64,000 nucleotides of DNA from NCBI RefSeq assembly GCF_035917995.1, contig NZ_CP109131.1, positions 4,836,001 through 4,900,000 on the forward strand, in the 5' to 3' direction. The notes beneath the pieces were generated by a model, which was not told the origin of the DNA, made no database searches, and saw only the letters and a program-made list of their open reading frames with translations. A program made the position numbers and the translations under genes. Origin of the DNA: Streptosporangium sp. NBC_01755 (GTDB taxonomy: Bacteria; Actinomycetota; Actinomycetes; Streptosporangiales; Streptosporangiaceae). Positions 1,489-52,260 of this stretch are shown here, piece after piece; position 1 is the stretch's first letter; each line of letters opens with the position of its first letter.

Positions 1489-1697
1489 TTTCGGCTCCTG
1501 AGGGTGGGATCCGAGGCGGGGTGCCCCGGAGAGAGGCCGGGGGCTCCTGCGGATGCGGGGGTTCCGGCTGATGCATCCAATTTATGTATATGCAAGCATT
1601 TATGTCCATCGAGATCTGCTTGACCGAACTGTTTAGCAGATCTGAATCGTTGGGCCACGGCAGGGCACCCGCTGCTCCGTGCGCCGCCGCCGCGCCG

Positions 1698-1703
1698 TAC
1701 TGT
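1698..1703 (+). promoter_or_regulatory. Candidate -10 element of a leaderless fbiC transcript
   Basis: TACTGT fits the actinobacterial TANNNT -10 consensus and lies exactly six bases before the A of the fbiC ATG at 1710. No Shine-Dalgarno sequence precedes that ATG. The simplest reading is that transcription starts at or next to the start codon. No clear -35 box was found. Confidence 0.45.
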
Positions 1704-1709
1704 GCCGTC

Positions 1710-4325
1710 ATGAGCGCCAACCCCACCGACAACGCGATGCGCCGGGCTCTGGCTAGGGCCCGCGACGGCAAAGCTCTCGATGTCGCCGAGGTCACAACCC
1801 TGTTGCACGCCCGGGACACGCATCTACAGACCCTCCTCGATCACGCCGGGAGGGTCAGGGACGCGGGCCTGGAGGCGGTCGGGCGGCAAGGGATCATCAC
1901 CTACAGCCGCAAGGTCTTCATCCCCCTGACGAGGCTCTGCCGGGACCGCTGCGGATACTGCACGTTCGCCACCGCCCCGCACAAGCTGGAGAGCATGTTC
2001 CTGAGCCCCGACGAGGTGCTGGAGATCGCCAGGCAGGGCGCGGCCATCGGGTGCAAGGAGGCCCTGTTCACCCTGGGGGACCGGCCGGAGGACCGCTGGC
2101 ACCAGGCCCGCGAGTGGCTGGACGCGCACGGCTACGACGACACGCTCTCCTACGTCCGTGCGATGGCCGTGCGGGTGCTTGAGGAGACAGGGCTGCTGCC
2201 GCACCTGAATCCGGGCGCCATGACCTGGCAGGACCTGCAGCGCCTCAAGCCGGTCGCGCCCTCCATGGGCATGATGCTGGAGACGACCTCGCGGCGGCTC
2301 TTCGAGGAGAAGGGGCAGCCGCACTACGGCTCGCCCGACAAGGACCCCGCCGTGCGGCTGCGCGTGCTGGAGGACGCCGGGCGGACGAACGTGCCGTTCA
2401 CCAGCGGCATCCTCATCGGCATCGGGGAGACGGTCGCCGACCGCGCCGAGTCGCTGTTCGCGCTGCGCAGGGTGGCGCGCGAGTACGGTGGCATCCAGGA
2501 GATCATCGTCCAGAACTTCCGCGCCAAGCCGGACACCGCGATGCGCGGCATGCCCGACGCCGACCTGCAGGAGCTGGCCGCCACCATCGCGGTGACCCGG
2601 CTGGTGCTGGGGCCGAAGATGAGGGTGCAGGCCCCGCCGAACCTGGTCGACTCCGAGTACGAGCTGATGATCAGGGCGGGCATCGACGACTGGGGCGGTG
2701 TCTCGCCGCTGACGCCCGACCACGTCAACCCCGAGCGTCCCTGGCCGCAGATCGACGACCTCGCCGCCCGCACCGCCGCCGCCGGGTTCACGCTGCGCGA
2801 GCGGCTGACCATCTATCCCGAGTTCGTGCTGGCGGGGGAGCCCTGGCTCGACCCCAGGCTCAACGCGCACGTGGCCGCCCTGGCGGACCCCGACACCGGC
2901 CTCGCCCGCGAGGACGCGGTCGTGACCGGCCGTCCCTGGCAGGAGCCCGACGGGGGCTTCGTCTCCCTGGGCCGCGTCGACCTGCACACGGCGGTCGACA
3001 CGGAGGGCCGTACCGCCGACCGCCGTGACGACTTCGACCACGTCTACGGAGACTGGGAGGCGCTGAAGGAGCGCCTGCCCGCAGCCGTGGGCGGCGGCGC
3101 CGTCAGGGGCGATGTGCGGGAGGCACTGCGGCAGGCCGAAAGCGACCCGGCGGGGCTGAGCGACGCACAGGCGCTCGTCCTCCTCGACCTCGCCGGAGAC
3201 CCGTCGGGCGCGGGCGCCGACGACGCCGCGCTGGACGAGCTCTGCCGGATCGCCGACGGCCTGCGCAGGGAGGCGGCCGGTGACGACGTCACCTACGTGG
3301 TGAACAGGAACATCAACTTCACGAACGTCTGCTACACGGGCTGCCGCTTCTGCGCCTTCGCGCAGCGCCGCACCGACGCCGACGCCTACACCCTCTCGCT
3401 GGAGCAGGTCGCCGACCGCGCCGGGGAGGGTTGGCAGGCAGGGGCGACCGAGGTGTGCATGCAGGGCGGCATCCACCCCGACCTGCCCGGCACCGCGTAC
3501 TTCGACATCGCCAGGGCGGTCAAGGCCAGGGTGCCCGAGATGCACGTCCACGCGTTCTCGCCGATGGAGGTCATCAACGGGGCCAGCCGCACCAACCTGT
3601 CCATCAAGGACTGGCTGGTCGCCGCCAGGGAGGCGGGTGTCGACTCGCTGCCGGGCACCGCGGCCGAGATCCTCGACGACGACGTCCGCTGGGTGCTGAC
3701 CAAGGGCAAGCTGCCCACCGCCGAGTGGGTCGAGGTCATCTCCACCGCGCACCGGGTCGGCATCCCGACGACCTCCACGATGATGTACGGCCACGTGGAC
3801 AACCACGCGCACTGGGTGCAGCACATCCGGCTGATCCGCCGCATCCAGGAGGAGACCGGTGGGTTCTCCGAGTTCGTGCTGCTGCCGTTCGTCCACCACA
3901 GCGCGCCCATCTACCTGGCGGGGATCGCCCGCCCGGGGCCGACGGCGCGGGAGAACCGGGCGGTGCACGCGCTGGCCCGGGTCCTGCTGCACGGCGCGAT
4001 CGCCAACATCCAGTGCTCCTGGGTGAAGCTCCAGGACGGTCTCTGCCGTGAGGTGCTCCTGGGCGGGGTCAACGACCTCGGCGGCACGCTGATGGAGGAG
4101 ACGATCAGCAGGATGGCCGGGTCGGAGAACGGCTCCTTCAAGACGATCAGCGAGATCGAGGCCATGGTCGCCCCGACCGGGCGGCCGGTCCGGCAGCGGA
4201 CCACCTCCTACGGCGTACCGGACGCCGGACGGCTGGCCGCGGCCAGGGCGAGCGACGGGGTCTGCCGGAGCGTCCGCCTCAACGCCCTTCCACTGCTCCC
4301 GCTGGAGGCGTCGACAAAAATGTAA
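1710..4325 (+). CDS. fbiC: FO synthase (7,8-didemethyl-8-hydroxy-5-deazariboflavin synthase), two radical-SAM domains
   Basis: 871-residue fusion of CofG and CofH that makes FO, the chromophore of coenzyme F420, from tyrosine and a ribitylaminouracil, using two SAM-dependent radical steps. Both iron-sulfur motifs are visible: C77-x3-C81-x2-C84 (CRDRCGYC) in the CofG half and C541-x3-C545-x2-C548 (CYTGCRFC) in the CofH half. Length agrees with the actinobacterial FbiC family (~850 residues). A longer frame opens at 1584, but its extra 42 residues look non-coding. The ATG at 1710 ([14 protein letters not shown]) matches the family start and has a -10 element placed for leaderless transcription. 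The partner genes fbiB and fbiA lie 9.6 kb downstream on the other strand, beyond an accessory island. Confidence 0.96.
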
Positions 4326-4402: not shown

Positions 4403-4933
4403 GTGCCCTCCTCCGGTCGACACCGTGTGGCCGTCGGCGCTGAGCGGCGTCGGCGTCAGGTTCTGCTGCGTCTGTCGCCGGCGGTGGTCGCGATGGCGGT
4501 CGCCCCGGCGGGAGGCGCCGTCCTGGTGCTCGACCAGGCGGGGGGTTCGTGCTCGACCCGCGACCCGGTGCGCCTCGGCCCGATCACCGAACCCGACGGC
4601 GGCCAGGTCATCCGGCGCAGCCGCCTGGAGGAGCTGACCCAGACCCTGCGCGCCGACCCGAAGGAGCCCGGCGCCCAGAGGAGATCATCGACGTCTTCCT
4701 CTCCGCCCTGGCCCGCCGCCTCTGTCACCCCACCTGTGCCAAGGCCCCGTAACCAGCTGTCGCCGGGTGGCGGACGGTTGCTCCGGCCGGAGGTCTGGAT
4801 CGTTCCGGCGAGGAGATCGGAGAGGGTGCCTGGAGTTTCGGTAGTCATTGACTTACTCTTGGTGACGAAATCCTGCTTCTCTTCAGGTAGGAGTACATCG
4901 GTCAACGACCCTGGCCCAAAGGCCAGGGCTTGA
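4403..4933 (+). pseudogene. Unrecognised open frame, probably a decayed gene remnant
   Basis: A GTG at 4403 follows GAGAGG at a suitable distance and opens a 176-codon frame. Residues ~20-50 contain a hydrophobic stretch (LLRLSPAVVAMAVAPAGGAV), then a hydrophilic part (ITEPDGGQVIRRSRLEELTQ). After about 4670 the frame loses protein-like character (runs of Ser and Pro), while the +1-shifted frame continues more plausibly (EEIIDVFLSALARRLCHP). This suggests a frameshifted exported-protein gene. The last ~30 bases run into the hairpin at the left side of the IscB element. No family recognised; it could also be fully non-coding. Confidence 0.3.
4909..4928. repeat. Left hairpin of the IscB element
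   Basis: Perfect 8-bp inverted repeat CCCTGGCC/GGCCAGGG with a CAAA loop. It sits upstream of the omega-RNA region and mirrors the hairpin at 5609-5628 downstream of the IscB frame. Confidence 0.7.
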
Positions 4934-4989
4934 GGTGCCACACCGCGCACTGATAGCCCCGCGTTGACCAGCCCAAGTCGATCGTCTTG

Positions 4990-5251
4990 AAGGAGGTGCA
5001 TTCGATTGACTACGTTTCACGTAGGTCAGCAGACCCACCAGTCCGTGCTTCCTCAGCGGGCTGCTCTGGAATCCGCGTCAGCAGACACGCCCGAGGGTGG
5101 GCACGAAACGGGACGCGGACACCGCTTCAGCGCGGTAACCGGCGTGGAACCTGGGCGAGGGGAGACCACGGCAGACGGCACCCGTCTGCCGCGGCGTCAC
5201 CCTGAAGACACTGCGGTGTCCGAGGGAGCGAACCGTGAGGTTCACCCGGTC
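4990..5251 (+). ncRNA. HEARO / omega-RNA leader of the IscB locus (approximate ends)
   Basis: The ~250 bases before the IscB frame look like the HEARO class (HNH-endonuclease-associated RNA and ORF), now known as the omega-RNA that guides IscB. Support: the position directly abutting the N-terminal PLMP/RRXRR domain, a high density of short inverted repeats (for example GACTACG/CGTAGGTC at 5008-5027), and conserved-looking blocks such as CAGCAGACCCACCAGTCCGT and ACACCGCTTCAGCGCGGT. In known systems the guide is the segment 5' of the scaffold. Here the scaffold probably starts near 5025, so the guide would be just upstream. The stretch is also open in frame with IscB from a TTG at 5006 preceded by AAGGAGG, which may be chance. 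Recognition is from memory of the family, not from a covariance search. Confidence 0.65.
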
Positions 5252-5650
5252 GTGTTCGTCCTGGACGCCCGCGGCCACCCGCTCGACCCCTGCCACCCCG
5301 CCCGCGCCCGCCGTCTGCTGGCGGCCGGTAGGGCGGTGGTGGTCCGCCACACCCCGTTCGTCATCCGGCTGCGCGACCGCGTGGCCGCCGACTCCACCGG
5401 CGACCTGGTCCGCGCGACCGTCCCGACCGGCAAGAAGGCCGGAGTCCACACCGGACGGGTCGCGGTCCGCACCACCGGAAGCTTCAACATCACCACCCGG
5501 CACGGCACCGTGCAGGGCATCGGCCACCGCCACGTCCGCCTGCTCCAACGAGCCGATGGCTACGGCTACACCACCCATCCGGAAGCGCGGCACCGTGCCG
5601 CGTTTCCTCCCCCGCCTGAAGGCGGGGGTATCCACGCTGGAGGTATCTGA
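5252..5650 (+). pseudogene. IscB-derived mini-protein: PLMP (RRXRR) domain fused directly to the IscB C-terminal domain
   Basis: 132 residues from the GTG at 5252. The N-terminus (MFVLDARGHPLDPCHPARAR to HTPFVIRLRDR) is the PLMP/RRXRR domain that opens IscB and Cas9-ancestor proteins. After RDRVAADS, where full IscB would continue into RuvC-I, the chain passes straight to TGDLVRATVPTGKKAGVHTG and QGIGHRHVRLLQRADGYGY, which resemble the C-terminal domain of IscB. Roughly 300 residues holding RuvC I-III, the bridge helix and HNH are therefore missing, with the frame kept. It cannot cut DNA by the known mechanism. It may be a simple deletion remnant or a retained RNA/DNA-binding derivative. The stop (TGA 5648-5650) shares its last base with the next ATG. 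Confidence 0.75.
5609..5628. repeat. Right hairpin of the IscB element
   Basis: CCCCCGCC-TGAA-GGCGGGGG, an 8-bp perfect stem with a TGAA tetraloop near the 3' end of the IscB-derived frame. Comparable hairpins end many IS200/IS605-type elements. Confidence 0.7.
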
Positions 5651-5724
5651 TGGAAAGTGCCGACGGTCGGATCATGGCGCTCATCGTGATCGCAATGATC
5701 GTGTTCGCCGTCTCACAGCTCTGA
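5650..5724 (+). CDS. 24-residue hydrophobic peptide, truncated relative of the next gene
   Basis: The ATG at 5650 overlaps the TGA of the IscB-derived frame by one base and has GGAGG seven bases upstream. The 24-residue product (MESADGRIMALIVIAMIVFA, ending VSQL) is one short transmembrane helix. It closely resembles the first 24 residues of the protein at 5782 (MDSSNGRILTLVVVAAIVFA), so the two genes look like a tandem duplication in which this copy is cut short. Alternatively it is a functional membrane micro-protein. Function unknown. Confidence 0.5.
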   Translation: MESADGRIMALIVIAMIVFAVSQL

Positions 5725-5781: not shown

Positions 5782-6036
5782 GTGGACAGCTCGAACGGCC
5801 GGATCCTGACCCTTGTCGTAGTGGCCGCGATCGTGTTCGCCGTCGGACGGCTTTTCCAGCGGACGATGGACACCTGGGCGGGATGGGGCAACGCGATCAA
5901 AGCGGCCGCCGAGGCCGCATCGAAGATCCCTGACGCCAAGTCGGCGGCCTGGAAGGCGGTCCGCCGCATGATCGGGGTTGGCCTGATAGCACTGATCGTG
6001 CTCGCGGCGGCCGTGAACGTGATCCGCTACGGCTGA
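5782..6036 (+). CDS. Small protein with two membrane helices, unknown function
   Basis: 84 residues from a GTG preceded by TAGGAG at a good distance. Hydrophobic helices lie at residues ~8-24 and ~63-82, separated by an amphipathic, Ala/Lys-rich stretch (AIKAAAEAASKIPDAKSAAW). Its N-terminus matches the 24-residue peptide encoded 57 bases upstream. No known family recognised. It could be an accessory peptide linked to the neighbouring island genes, but nothing in the sequence assigns a role. Confidence 0.6.
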   Translation: MDSSNGRILTLVVVAAIVFAVGRLFQRTMDTWAGWGNAIKAAAEAASKIPDAKSAAWKAVRRMIGVGLIALIVLAAAVNVIRYG

Positions 6037-8851: not shown

Positions 8852-9981
8852 CGACACCTGGCATGCCCCACTGCTCGCCCCTAGCGTCGGTGGAGATCCG
8901 TTCCCCACACGGAGATCTGTTCGCCGGCGCCCCATGCGCCGCCTGACGAAGGAGCGCATGACATGTCGAACGGAACTTGCCGCAGATCGTACTGGTCATC
9001 ACGTCGGCGGAGGACGTCACCGCCAATCTGGTCATCGAAGCGCTGAACGAGCGCCAAGCGTACGTCGCCCGCGTCGATCCCGCCGATGTCGGCCCCGAGC
9101 TGATGTTCAGCGCCTACATCAATAGCCATCGCCCGGAGTGGATCGGTCGGCTCCGTTCGCCGAGTCGTGACATCGCGCTGGAGGACGTCGGGGCGGTGTA
9201 TTACCGCCGCCCCAGCTCTTGGCGTTTCGAGAGCCTGGAAAAGCCGGCTCGGGATTTCGCCGTGACGGAGGCCAGACATGGGCTGGGCGGGCTGCTGGCG
9301 AGCCTGCCGAACTGTCGCTACGTCAACCATCCCGCCAATATCGGAAGGGCTGATTTCAAAGTCACGCAGCTACAGGTGGCTACTGAGCCGATCATGTGCG
9401 CCCAGTAGAACTGGAGGTGAAGCCGTGACATAGCGGCTGATCTGCATGTTCGTAAGCTCGTCGTCGCTTGCCGGTGAAAGTCCGGTCCGGGTAGCTGCCA
9501 GGAGGCCCGGTAGCAGGCTGGCGGCTTCGTCTGGAAACGGGCGGGGTCGAAGCCCAGCGTCAAAAGCCCTTAAGGGGGAGCGACGATGCGGTCCGTAGCA
9601 TGACGCGAAGCCTGCGGCGTCGTTACTCAGCCGTCTTCGGACGGGACAAGGGAGAGCCGAGCCCCTCGTGATCGGGGTGAAGGCCATGGAAGCGGCGAAG
9701 AGCCTGGAAATTGCAGCCGCGAAGAACTCCCCGGCGTATGGGGCGCGGAACGTATCGATAGTGACGGCGGGAACTGGGGAGGCCCTCCCCGGCCCGGTGA
9801 CCTGCGGAAGGTGTTACCGGAGCGTGGCGTCCTATAACCGGTCAACGCCGGGAAGTGGATTGCTGGCCGGGTGGGCGTCGGAGGCGGCCGTAGTACTGCT
9901 TGAGCCGACCGGACAACATAACCGGCGGTGAGGGAAGGGCCGCTACTTCGTCGATGCATATTGAGGTGGAGGAGGGGCTCG

Positions 9982-11361
9982 GTGAGTGCCGTTTTGGCTA
10001 TTCCCGCCGCCGTGGGGCCGCGTGTTCCGCGTGATCCGGTCCGCGCCTTGCAGCATGTGCTCTACCGGGCGGCCAAGGCCGATCCCGGACGTCGGTTCCA
10101 CGCGCTCATGGACAAGGTCTATCGCAGAGACGTTCTGGAGCGCGGGTGGGTCATGGTGCGCAGCAACAACGGCGCACCGGGCATCGACGCGACCACGCTG
10201 GCCGACATCGAGGAGTACGGGATCGTCCGGCTTCTTGAGGAGTTGGCCGCGGAACTTCGGCAGGGCCGGTATCGGCCATTGCCCGCGCGCCGGGTGATGA
10301 TCCCCAAGCCTGGGCTGAAGGACGAGTACCGGCCGTTGTCGATTCCCGCTGTTCGGGATCGGATCGTGCAGGCCGCTGTGAAGATCGTGTTCGAACCGGT
10401 CTTCGAGGCGGACATGGCTGATTGCTCATTCGGGTTTCGCCCGAAGCGCTCAGCACACGATGCTCTGCAAGTGCTCATTGAGGAGCAGGCGCGGGGCCGC
10501 CGGTGGGTGGTCGAGACGGACATCGCCAACTGCTTTTCGGCGATTCCGCACGATGAGTTGATGCGTGCGATCGAGGAACGCGTCTGCGATCAGTCGCTCC
10601 TGAAGCTCCTGCGGGTGATTCTGCGCGCCGGGGTGATGGAGGACGGACAGATCCGGCGAGAGGTCACCGGCACGCCACAAGGCGGCGTGGTTTCACCCGT
10701 CCTCTGTAACGTCTACCTGCACCGATTGGATCGGGCGTGGGACGAGGCGGACGGCGTGCTGGCCCGCTATGCCGACGACGCGATCGTGATGTGCTGGTCC
10801 CGCGGTCAAGCCGAGCGGGCCCTGGCCCGCCTGACGGAGCTGCTGGCGGCACTCGGTTTGGAGCCGAAGGCCGCCAAGACCCGCATCGTGCACCTGGAGG
10901 TCGGTGGGGAAGGCCTGGACTTCCTGGGCTTTCACCACCGGCTGGTGCGCTCACGCGGGTTCAACGGGAAACGGCCGTTCGTTTTCCTCGCTCGCTGGCC
11001 CTCAGACAGGGCGATGCAACACGCCCGCGACCGGATCCGTGACCTCACGGACGGCCGCAGGCTGCTGCTTCGCACCGAAGCGATCACCAAGGAGGTCAAC
11101 CTGTTCCTGCGGGGATGGGCTGGCTATTTCCGGTACGGGCATTCTGCCCGGCGCTTTAGCAAGATCAGAGAGTTCGCCTGGATGCGCCTGGCGCTGTTCC
11201 TCAGCCGAAAACACCGGCGCAGCCGGAGCTACGGCCGGGGCGTGCTGAAACGCTCGCTCAGCGATCTCGGCTTGATCAGCCTGTATGGAATCGTCGTCGC
11301 GCCCAGGGCGGGCAAGCCCTGGCGGGAAAGGCCGAATGCCGGCGGTGAACGACGTCGGTGA
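9982..11361 (+). CDS. ltrA: Group II intron reverse transcriptase/maturase
   Basis: 459 residues from a GTG with GGAGGAGG just upstream. The reverse transcriptase blocks are complete: NNGAPGIDATT, RPLPARRVMIPKPGLKDEYR, FGFRPKRSAHDAL, DIANCFSAIPH, TGTPQGGVVSPVLCNVYLH and the catalytic YADD at residues 263-266. They are followed by a maturase X region (FLRGWAGYFRYG). No HNH endonuclease domain is evident after the X region; the C-terminus ends in basic residues. It binds intron RNA for splicing and reverse-transcribes it during mobility. Its stop codon touches domain V, as expected for an ORF in domain IV. The protein looks intact. Confidence 0.95.
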   Translation: MSAVLAIPAAVGPRVPRDPVRALQHVLYRAAKADPGRRFHALMDKVYRRDVLERGWVMVRSNNGAPGIDATTLADIEEYGIVRLLEELAAELRQGRYRPLPARRVMIPKPGLKDEYRPLSIPAVRDRIVQAAVKIVFEPVFEADMADCSFGFRPKRSAHDALQVLIEEQARGRRWVVETDIANCFSAIPHDELMRAIEERVCDQSLLKLLRVILRAGVMEDGQIRREVTGTPQGGVVSPVLCNVYLHRLDRAWDEADGVLARYADDAIVMCWSRGQAERALARLTELLAALGLEPKAAKTRIVHLEVGGEGLDFLGFHHRLVRSRGFNGKRPFVFLARWPSDRAMQHARDRIRDLTDGRRLLLRTEAITKEVNLFLRGWAGYFRYGHSARRFSKIREFAWMRLALFLSRKHRRSRSYGRGVLKRSLSDLGLISLYGIVVAPRAGKPWRERPNAGGERRR

Positions 11362-51741: not shown

Positions 51742-52260
51742 GGGGCGATTTGACGCCCCGTCTCACTCCGGCGCCACACATCACTGTCTCGATCGTGCCT
51801 TCTGAGCTGCTCAACGGATGTGAGAAGCCCTCACACCCGGCGGTGCCCGCGCGTGGGGCAGGGGTCTTTGAAGATCGGCAGCCCGGCCGTGAACCACACA
51901 AAGTGATTTTCGGCCCGACCACCAAGCTGACATTCGGCCGGGATGCGGATAGCGTCTGAGCCATGGCACCCGCTCGGGTCCGTGGTTGCGCCGGACCGAC
52001 CTCCGACAGGAGGCCGGCCCGGCTAGCCGATGCCAGCCGCAGGCCAAACGGTCCACGTAAGACGACTTTTCGTCGATCGATCACGGTGCGGCTTAGAGGT
52101 AAGTCCTGCCTTCCCGGGGAGCCAGATGTTCCTCGCCAGAAGAGAAGGGCATGTAGTGGCAAAGAGCTGCGAAACCCTCAGCAGGCGGATGTGGGGACGA
52201 AGACCAGGTCGGCCGAGCGGGTGCCGAAATACCACCGTCGAGATTCGAAGGGGGCTGTGC
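51742..52260. other. 519-bp leader region upstream of hpf
   Basis: No convincing gene on either strand. A 69-codon frame from a TTG at 51750 has no ribosome site or family resemblance. hpf genes are commonly controlled by stress sigma factors from long leaders. Several A+T-richer patches (for example near 51900 and 52080) could hold promoters, but no consensus pair was identified. Confidence 0.4.

What the first reader, a model, noticed from the sequence alone, without database searches (positions are those of the whole stretch)
5252..5650. In-frame IscB lacking RuvC and HNH but retaining both ends
The N-terminal PLMP/RRXRR domain (about 45 residues) continues at RDRVAADS directly into the IscB C-terminal domain (TGDLVRATVPTGKKAG...). 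Known natural variants are IsrB (no HNH) and IshB (HNH, no RuvC). A form keeping only the two nucleic-acid-binding ends, with frame preserved and an RNA gene upstream, is to my knowledge not described. It could be a dead remnant, or an RNA-guided binder without nuclease comparable to the nuclease-dead TnpB-derived regulators.
Basis: partly seen in the sequence, partly recalled or inferred. Interest (0 to 1): 0.75.

Follow-up and report, generated by a model that had tools for sequence, protein, structure and literature searches.

The report
Freshly gutted IscB transposon copy
A mobile element that normally carries a Cas9-like RNA-guided DNA cutter has here lost the cutter's whole middle but kept its guide-RNA gene and both protein ends; a nearly identical intact copy sits elsewhere in the same genome, so this is most likely a recent deletion product rather than a new kind of RNA-guided protein.

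Summary
Window 4901-5649 is a 749-bp IscB/HEARO element. Its ORF (GTG 5252, stop 5648-5650, 132 aa) joins PLMP residues 1-48 directly to the TAM-interacting end, residues 368-451.

The same genome holds a 1706-bp full-length copy differing by one base outside an exact 957-bp (319-codon) gap with 2-bp microhomology. So this is a young deletion; RuvC, bridge helix and HNH are gone. With no coding substitutions dN/dS cannot be computed. The sister itself carries a RuvC D58N change.

A second, independent PLMP+C-terminus form lies on Allochromatium tepidum plasmid pAt1, again beside an intact sister. Other deleted IscBs have other breakpoints. Large internal deletions keep frame more often than the expected third (11 of 16, p=0.004, post hoc).

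The element sits between the ribosome-binding site and start codon of a small host gene, brings its own GGAGG, and its stop overlaps the host start (TGATG). Preserved frame may therefore serve host-gene translation.

An RNA-guided binder is not supported but not excluded.

The parts
4885..4900 (+). predicted 16-nt guide, i.e. the flank just 5' of the element; in two relatives without the element the same stretch (one base different) is followed directly by ATGGAAAG
   Evidence: empty sites L129 and L137; that the guide is the 5' flank is established knowledge of IscB omegaRNAs
4901..5649 (+). whole deletion derivative of an IscB/HEARO element (749 bp; ends uncertain by one G)
   Evidence: comparison with the 1706-bp full-length copy and with empty sites
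4901..5169 (+). HEARO RNA / omegaRNA, one loop base (4917) different from the sister
   Evidence: RF02033 85.5 bits; sister 89 bits
5252..5650 (+). short IscB ORF, 132 aa, GTG start, TGA stop 5648-5650
5252..5395 (+). N-terminal PLMP part, residues 1-48 of the sister
   Evidence: Pfam RRXRR positions 2-62; alignment
5394..5395 (+). deletion junction: 957 bp missing, 2-bp CC shared
5396..5647 (+). C-terminal TAM-interacting part, residues 368-451 of the sister
   Evidence: domain name by analogy with IsrB/IscB structures (passages of PMC9581776, PMC9640706)
5636..5649 (+). right end of the element with GGAGG (5639-5643) upstream of the host start codon
5650..5724 (+). host gene of 24 aa (MESADGRIMALIVIAMIVFAVSQL) whose ATG overlaps the IscB stop (TGATG)
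   Evidence: a 24-25-aa ORF with a similar start, directly behind its own ribosome-binding-site-like stretch, in 7 of 12 relatives' loci looked at

Best explanation
This is a recent internal-deletion (non-autonomous) derivative of an IscB/HEARO mobile element. Shown: a full-length 1706-bp element is present elsewhere in the genome; the window copy lacks 957 bp of it between two points sharing only CC, which takes away residues 49-367 (by motif: RuvC-I, bridge helix, RuvC-II, HNH, RuvC-III) and leaves both element ends, the omegaRNA gene and an in-frame PLMP-TI fusion. Shown: it sits exactly between the ribosome-binding-site stretch and the ATG of a 24-aa host gene, and its right end has GGAGG and a TGATG stop-start overlap. 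Inferred: the 132-aa protein has no nuclease and most likely no RNA-guided DNA binding of its own; the intact omegaRNA could still load onto full-length IscB made by other copies; the frame survived either by chance (one in three) or because translation through the element serves the downstream gene.
For: One mismatch in 749 bp against the intact copy, exact 957-bp gap, CC microhomology. Six full-length copies and one C-terminal remnant in the same genome, and only one copy of the junction. Empty site at the same locus in two relatives. Of 26 genome contigs relatives, 15 gave DNA matches on both sides and all 15 have near-full-length spacing; the other 11 gave one side or no DNA match. Related loci show many different internal deletions, i.e. 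a recurring process. The genome has Y1 transposase genes that could act in trans: 10 PF01797 matches, 5 near full length.
Against: In-frame deletions are commoner than chance across related loci (11 of 16), and the same two-ended architecture arose independently in Allochromatium tepidum; simple decay does not predict this. In A. tepidum the retained coding parts differ from the sister on the same plasmid by 5 synonymous and 3 non-synonymous codons, not clearly relaxed.
Confidence: 0.82

Rival explanations
1. The frame is kept by selection for host-gene translation, not for the protein. The element lands between host ribosome-binding site and start codon; ribosomes run through the IscB ORF to a stop at or near the host start (ATGA or TGATG). 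Out-of-frame deletions would stop translation early and reduce host expression (polarity).
For: In 21 parsed right ends (of 53 C-termini looked at) the base after RTG is A in 20 and G only in the window; the IscB stop overlaps the host start by 1 or 4 nt in 11 of 21; 17 of 21 downstream ORFs are at least 150 aa. The A. tepidum short copy also sits directly before the start of a DUF29 gene. In-frame excess 11 of 16.
Against: In 10 of 21 parsed copies the stop does not overlap the start; in two in-frame deleted copies it is clearly upstream (L128, 29 nt; A. tepidum, ORF end 4336 and host start 4401 in L143), and most other deleted copies were not parsed. My pattern imposed RTG at the target, and long ORFs are common by chance in G+C-rich DNA. 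No expression data. The window copy is too young to show selection.
Confidence: 0.35
2. The locus is an omegaRNA-only guide donor: its RNA loads onto full-length IscB from other copies and marks the empty site, keeping the deleted copy in the population.
For: OmegaRNA identical to the sister's but for one loop base. Five other full-length copies keep the RuvC-I aspartate. PMC9581776 section 6 (read) cites standalone omegaRNAs that work with IscB. The predicted guide matches the empty-site flank of two relatives apart from one base.
Against: The 3' flank is ATGG, where the 20 other parsed sites have RTGA; DtIsrB did not cut ATGG (PMC9581776 passages), although two other IsrBs were assayed there on ATGG. 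The closest sister has D58N.
Confidence: 0.25
3. A functional PLMP-TI microprotein: binds the 3' hairpin/Shine-Dalgarno part of omegaRNA, or TAM-like DNA, and regulates IscB in trans.
For: Independent second case in A. tepidum. PMC9581776 section 6 (read): in IsrB the PLMP domain contacts the terminal hairpins, one of which carries the Shine-Dalgarno sequence, and this may regulate expression; its section 5 passages say PLMP touches the TI domain. In-frame excess.
Against: In OgeuIscB the PLMP motif and TI beta6 pack on RuvC (PMC9640706 passages), which is gone. Other in-frame deletions keep different domains. No conservation of this form was found.
Confidence: 0.1
4. Assembly artefact.
For: Near-identical repeat copies exist, which can mislead assemblers; no reads were available to me.
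Against: Single-contig genome. The junction is clean, and the flanks match the empty site of relatives. An unrelated genome has the same kind of deletion.
Confidence: 0.03

Closest known systems
IscB (OMEGA) elements with HEARO RNA, IS200/IS605 superfamily
   Same: omegaRNA, right-end hairpin, PLMP start and TI end; nearly identical to a full-length copy in the genome
   Different: no RuvC, bridge helix or HNH
IsrB (PLMP-RuvC-TI, no HNH; passages of PMC9581776)
   Same: smaller IscB relative with omegaRNA
   Different: IsrB keeps RuvC and bridge helix and nicks DNA; here both are lost
IshB (recalled: HNH without RuvC)
   Same: a domain-loss relative of IscB
   Different: no HNH here
TldR, TnpB-derived RNA-guided transcription factors (seen as the start of the abstract of PMC13418256 in the listing; otherwise recalled)
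   Same: nuclease-free relative of an OMEGA effector
   Different: from the TnpB branch; recalled to keep the guided-binding core; here that core is deleted and the guide has no other fitting genomic target
Non-autonomous internal-deletion derivatives of transposons (recalled)
   Same: both ends kept, inside lost, intact relative in the genome
   Different: here the reading frame is open across the junction and an RNA gene is kept
Allochromatium tepidum pAt1 short IscB (L143:3995-4336)
   Same: PLMP joined to TI, HEARO 100.7 bits, intact sister on the same plasmid
   Different: independent deletion of 1008 nt, K43 and V381 joined through one G, 113 aa

Membership tests
IscB RNA-guided endonuclease | PLMP/RRXRR N-terminus | tested here: met
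   Pfam RRXRR 3.7e-16, positions 2-62 of 174
IscB RNA-guided endonuclease | RuvC-I/II/III, bridge helix and HNH | tested here: not met
   residues 49-367 absent; NCBIfam guided_IscB 63.2 bits against cut-off 175
IscB/HEARO element | HEARO RNA directly upstream of the ORF | tested here: met
   RF02033 85.5 bits over gathering 83
IscB/HEARO element | defined element ends with an empty site in relatives | tested here: met
   L129, L137
IscB/HEARO element | insertion 5' of RTGA (usual in these relatives, not a defining feature) | tested here: not met
   ATGG here; the 20 other parsed sites are RTGA
IsrB | RuvC and bridge helix present, HNH absent | tested here: not met
   RuvC and bridge helix absent
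RNA-guided regulator without nuclease (TldR-like) | conserved guided-binding core and a guide with a host target | tested here: not met
   core deleted; of 3 matches within 3 mismatches one is the element itself and two lack a fitting NTGR flank; the backwards control gave 1
RNA-guided regulator without nuclease (TldR-like) | binds omegaRNA and DNA | not testable with these tools
   needs a binding assay
non-autonomous deletion derivative | intact near-identical relative in the genome, both ends kept | tested here: met
non-autonomous deletion derivative | moved after the deletion | tested here: inconclusive
   only one copy of the junction found

The most novel reading that the evidence does not exclude
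Internally deleted IscBs are not plain wreckage: the reading frame is selectively kept, and the extreme form that keeps only PLMP and TI, arisen at least twice (in a Streptosporangium relative and in Allochromatium), is a small trans-acting protein that binds the Shine-Dalgarno-bearing hairpin of omegaRNA and tunes IscB expression or activity, like self-regulating deletion derivatives of other transposons.
Probability: 0.08. Interest if true: 0.8.

Novelty: new variant of a known kind. Interest (0 to 1): 0.4.

Why it matters
It shows how IscB elements lose their nuclease while keeping ends and omegaRNA, giving natural omegaRNA-only donors. The frame bias, the start-codon targeting and the stop-start overlap make a testable proposal: these elements are tolerated in front of host genes because they are translated through.

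Tried and rejected
Considered and rejected: an IsrB-like lineage (RuvC is absent); the same short form conserved in relatives (none found with this junction among the listed matches); a regulatory guide with another genomic target (none fitting). A dN/dS for the window is impossible, with zero coding differences from the sister.

Frame count details. Rule: the matches on both sides of the deletion at least 60 bits, deletion at least 99 nt (coordinates). In frame 11: L112, L113, L114, L115, L120, L144, L160, L161, L166, L167 and the second deletion of L119. Out of frame 5: the first deletion of L119, L162 (its frame is restored by a second indel), L163 (one alignment in frame, one not; counted against), L164, L165. 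L144 and L165 lack the N-terminal part; L161 starts at a contig edge; L113 and L163 have a further small frameshift; L166 and L167 are two loci of one genome. Dropped: the window and A. tepidum as seeds (both in frame; with them 13 of 18, p=0.0009); L128, L146, L168 for a weak N part (all in frame); L145 as too divergent; a further in-frame gap in L120. Loci with a single stretch, one-base frameshifts and insertions (L124, L125, L169, L170) were not counted, and not every partial match in the lists was fetched. The test is post hoc. In one search and only four candidates per genome were scored, so copies were missed there; the 24 new family genomes were rescored.

The right-end table parsed 21 of 53 C-termini; the others did not fit my pattern, and the pattern imposed RTG. 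The sister L015 was merged there with the window; its own target reads ATGA. Structure prediction of the short and full proteins could not be run.

Full report
WHAT IS THERE. The stretch lies in an 8.15-Mb single-contig genome. The genus is inferred to be Streptosporangium: contig C4 of the same-genus genome G202 has the length of an S. amethystogenes contig (708,896), and contig C2 of the same-genus G142 has the length of Streptosporangium plasmid NZ_CP109431.1 (358,303). At 4901-5169 there is a HEARO RNA (RF02033, 85.5 bits, gathering 83). It is followed by an ORF from GTG 5252 to the TGA at 5648-5650 that joins a PLMP/RRXRR start to an IscB C-terminus.

ORIGIN. The genome holds six full-length IscB loci, this short one, and one C-terminal remnant. 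The copy at C1:7139292-7140644 is the sister. Element against element, 1706 and 749 bp, they differ by one base (window 4917) and one gap of exactly 957 bp, with CC shared at the junction 5394-5395. In sister numbering the window keeps residues 1-48 and 368-451. It loses RuvC-I (position 58), E157, HNH H213, H311 and D314 (the catalytic roles are assigned by motif and by passages of PMC9640706). The sister itself has N where nearly all others have D at position 58 (GINPGSK), so its RuvC is probably inactive; of the other loci compared, S. canum L025 shows the same change.

INSERTION SITE. Relatives G202 and G142 lack the element and read AGGTAGGGGTACATCG followed by ATGGAAAG. The element therefore sits between the ribosome-binding-site stretch and the ATG of a 24-aa gene; 7 of 12 relatives' loci looked at show a 24-25-aa ORF with a similar start. 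Its right end has GGAGG, and the IscB stop overlaps the host ATG as TGATG. Of 53 IscB C-termini looked at, 21 right ends were parsed: the base after RTG is A in 20 and G only here; the IscB stop overlaps the host start by 1 or 4 nt in 11 of 21; and 17 of 21 downstream ORFs have at least 150 aa (my pattern imposed RTG). I recall, from no call, that HEARO elements were reported next to ATGA/GTGA; a library search for HEARO with these words found 30 papers, and none of the 20 listed contains HEARO.

IS THE FORM UNIQUE? Of 26 genome contigs relatives, 15 gave DNA matches on both sides and all 15 have near-full-length spacing; 11 gave one side or none. The same junction was not among the listed matches in 250 family genomes (capped list), in 76 family genomes rescored with nearly all candidates (the list of 32 capped), in 2 viral relatives, in a viral pattern scan, or in the 1 phage record with a match. 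Among 47 plasmid records with a match, one has a place covering at least 80% of the query: Allochromatium tepidum pAt1. There a 113-aa ORF joins residues 1-43 to 381-449 of an intact IscB on the same plasmid (1008 nt lost, in frame), with HEARO RNAs of 100.7 and 103.6 bits before the two. Coding differences from the sister are 5 synonymous and 3 non-synonymous codons. It too sits before a host start codon, that of a DUF29 gene. So the two-ended form has arisen at least twice.

FRAME. Related loci show many other internal deletions with different breakpoints. With matches of at least 60 bits on both sides and a deletion of at least 99 nt, and the two seeds left out, 11 of 16 deletions are in frame (one-sided binomial against one third, p=0.004; rule and dropped rows under Tried and rejected). 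Of 16 deleted loci given to Rfam (three of them dropped from the count; L163 and L165 not given), 14 have a HEARO match at E up to 1e-4, 4 of these above gathering. The test was made after seeing the data. It suggests selection on the reading frame but does not say for what.

HOW IT MOST LIKELY WORKS. As a protein it most likely does little. In solved relatives the PLMP motif and the last TI strand pack on RuvC, and RuvC and bridge helix belong to the core that binds the guide-target duplex (passages of PMC9640706 and PMC9581776); all of that is missing. As an RNA gene it may still act: the omegaRNA is intact, full-length IscBs exist in trans, and standalone omegaRNAs that work with IscB are cited in PMC9581776 (section 6 read). 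Its target, the empty site, carries ATGG rather than RTGA, which DtIsrB does not cut, although two other IsrBs were assayed on ATGG (passages of PMC9581776). The predicted guide has no other fitting target in the genome: of three matches within 3 mismatches, one is the element itself and two lack an NTGR flank; the backwards control gave one match. As a piece of host leader it supplies a ribosome-binding-site-like GGAGG and a stop-start overlap, and this is my preferred candidate for why frame is kept where it is kept; against it, the stop is 29 nt (L128) and about 64 nt (A. tepidum) upstream of the host start in two other in-frame cases.

LITERATURE. The listed entries (20 of 20; 20 of 30; 20 of 55; 20 of 1,692; 20 of 75; 20 of 1,326; 20 of 21; 10 of 393) show no title or abstract start describing an IscB that keeps only PLMP and TI. 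I read section 6 and passages of PMC9581776, and passages of PMC9640706, PMC9755519 and PMC13180657. Absence from these lists is weak evidence of novelty.

VERDICT. A confirmed observation with an ordinary origin, a recent non-autonomous deletion derivative, set in an interesting pattern: independent recurrence and a frame bias.

Noticed in passing
window 5636-5652; L016-L020 and family loci: IscB elements here insert exactly 5' of host start codons (RTGA), many with GGAGG at their right end, and in 11 of 21 parsed copies the IscB stop overlaps the host start by 1 or 4 nt.
   Followed up: partly
L015 (G000:C1:7139292-7140644) and L025: Full-length IscBs with a RuvC-I D-to-N change (GINPGSK, VGVNPGSK): possible natural HNH-only nickases.
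   Followed up: partly
L112, L114, L115, L120, L128, L160, L161, L166-L168: Further in-frame internally deleted IscBs with various domains missing, all but L161 with a HEARO match.
   Followed up: partly
G000:C1:4990006-4990242 (-) and 5445786-5445874 (+), outside the window: Two HEARO matches below gathering (60.5 and 36.7 bits) where and one search list no IscB: possible standalone omegaRNAs or remnants.
   Followed up: no
window 5650-5724 and 5782-6036: Two adjacent small genes with similar starts (24 and 84 aa), with relatives in the genus; the 84-aa one has no Pfam match.
   Followed up: partly
window 9468-11361: Group II intron RNA match and reverse transcriptase/maturase ORF.
   Followed up: no
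window 51969-52221: raiA RNA, 149.6 bits.
   Followed up: no
window 1584-4325: Two-domain radical-SAM protein with a CofH C-terminal region, FO-synthase-like (name recalled).
   Followed up: no
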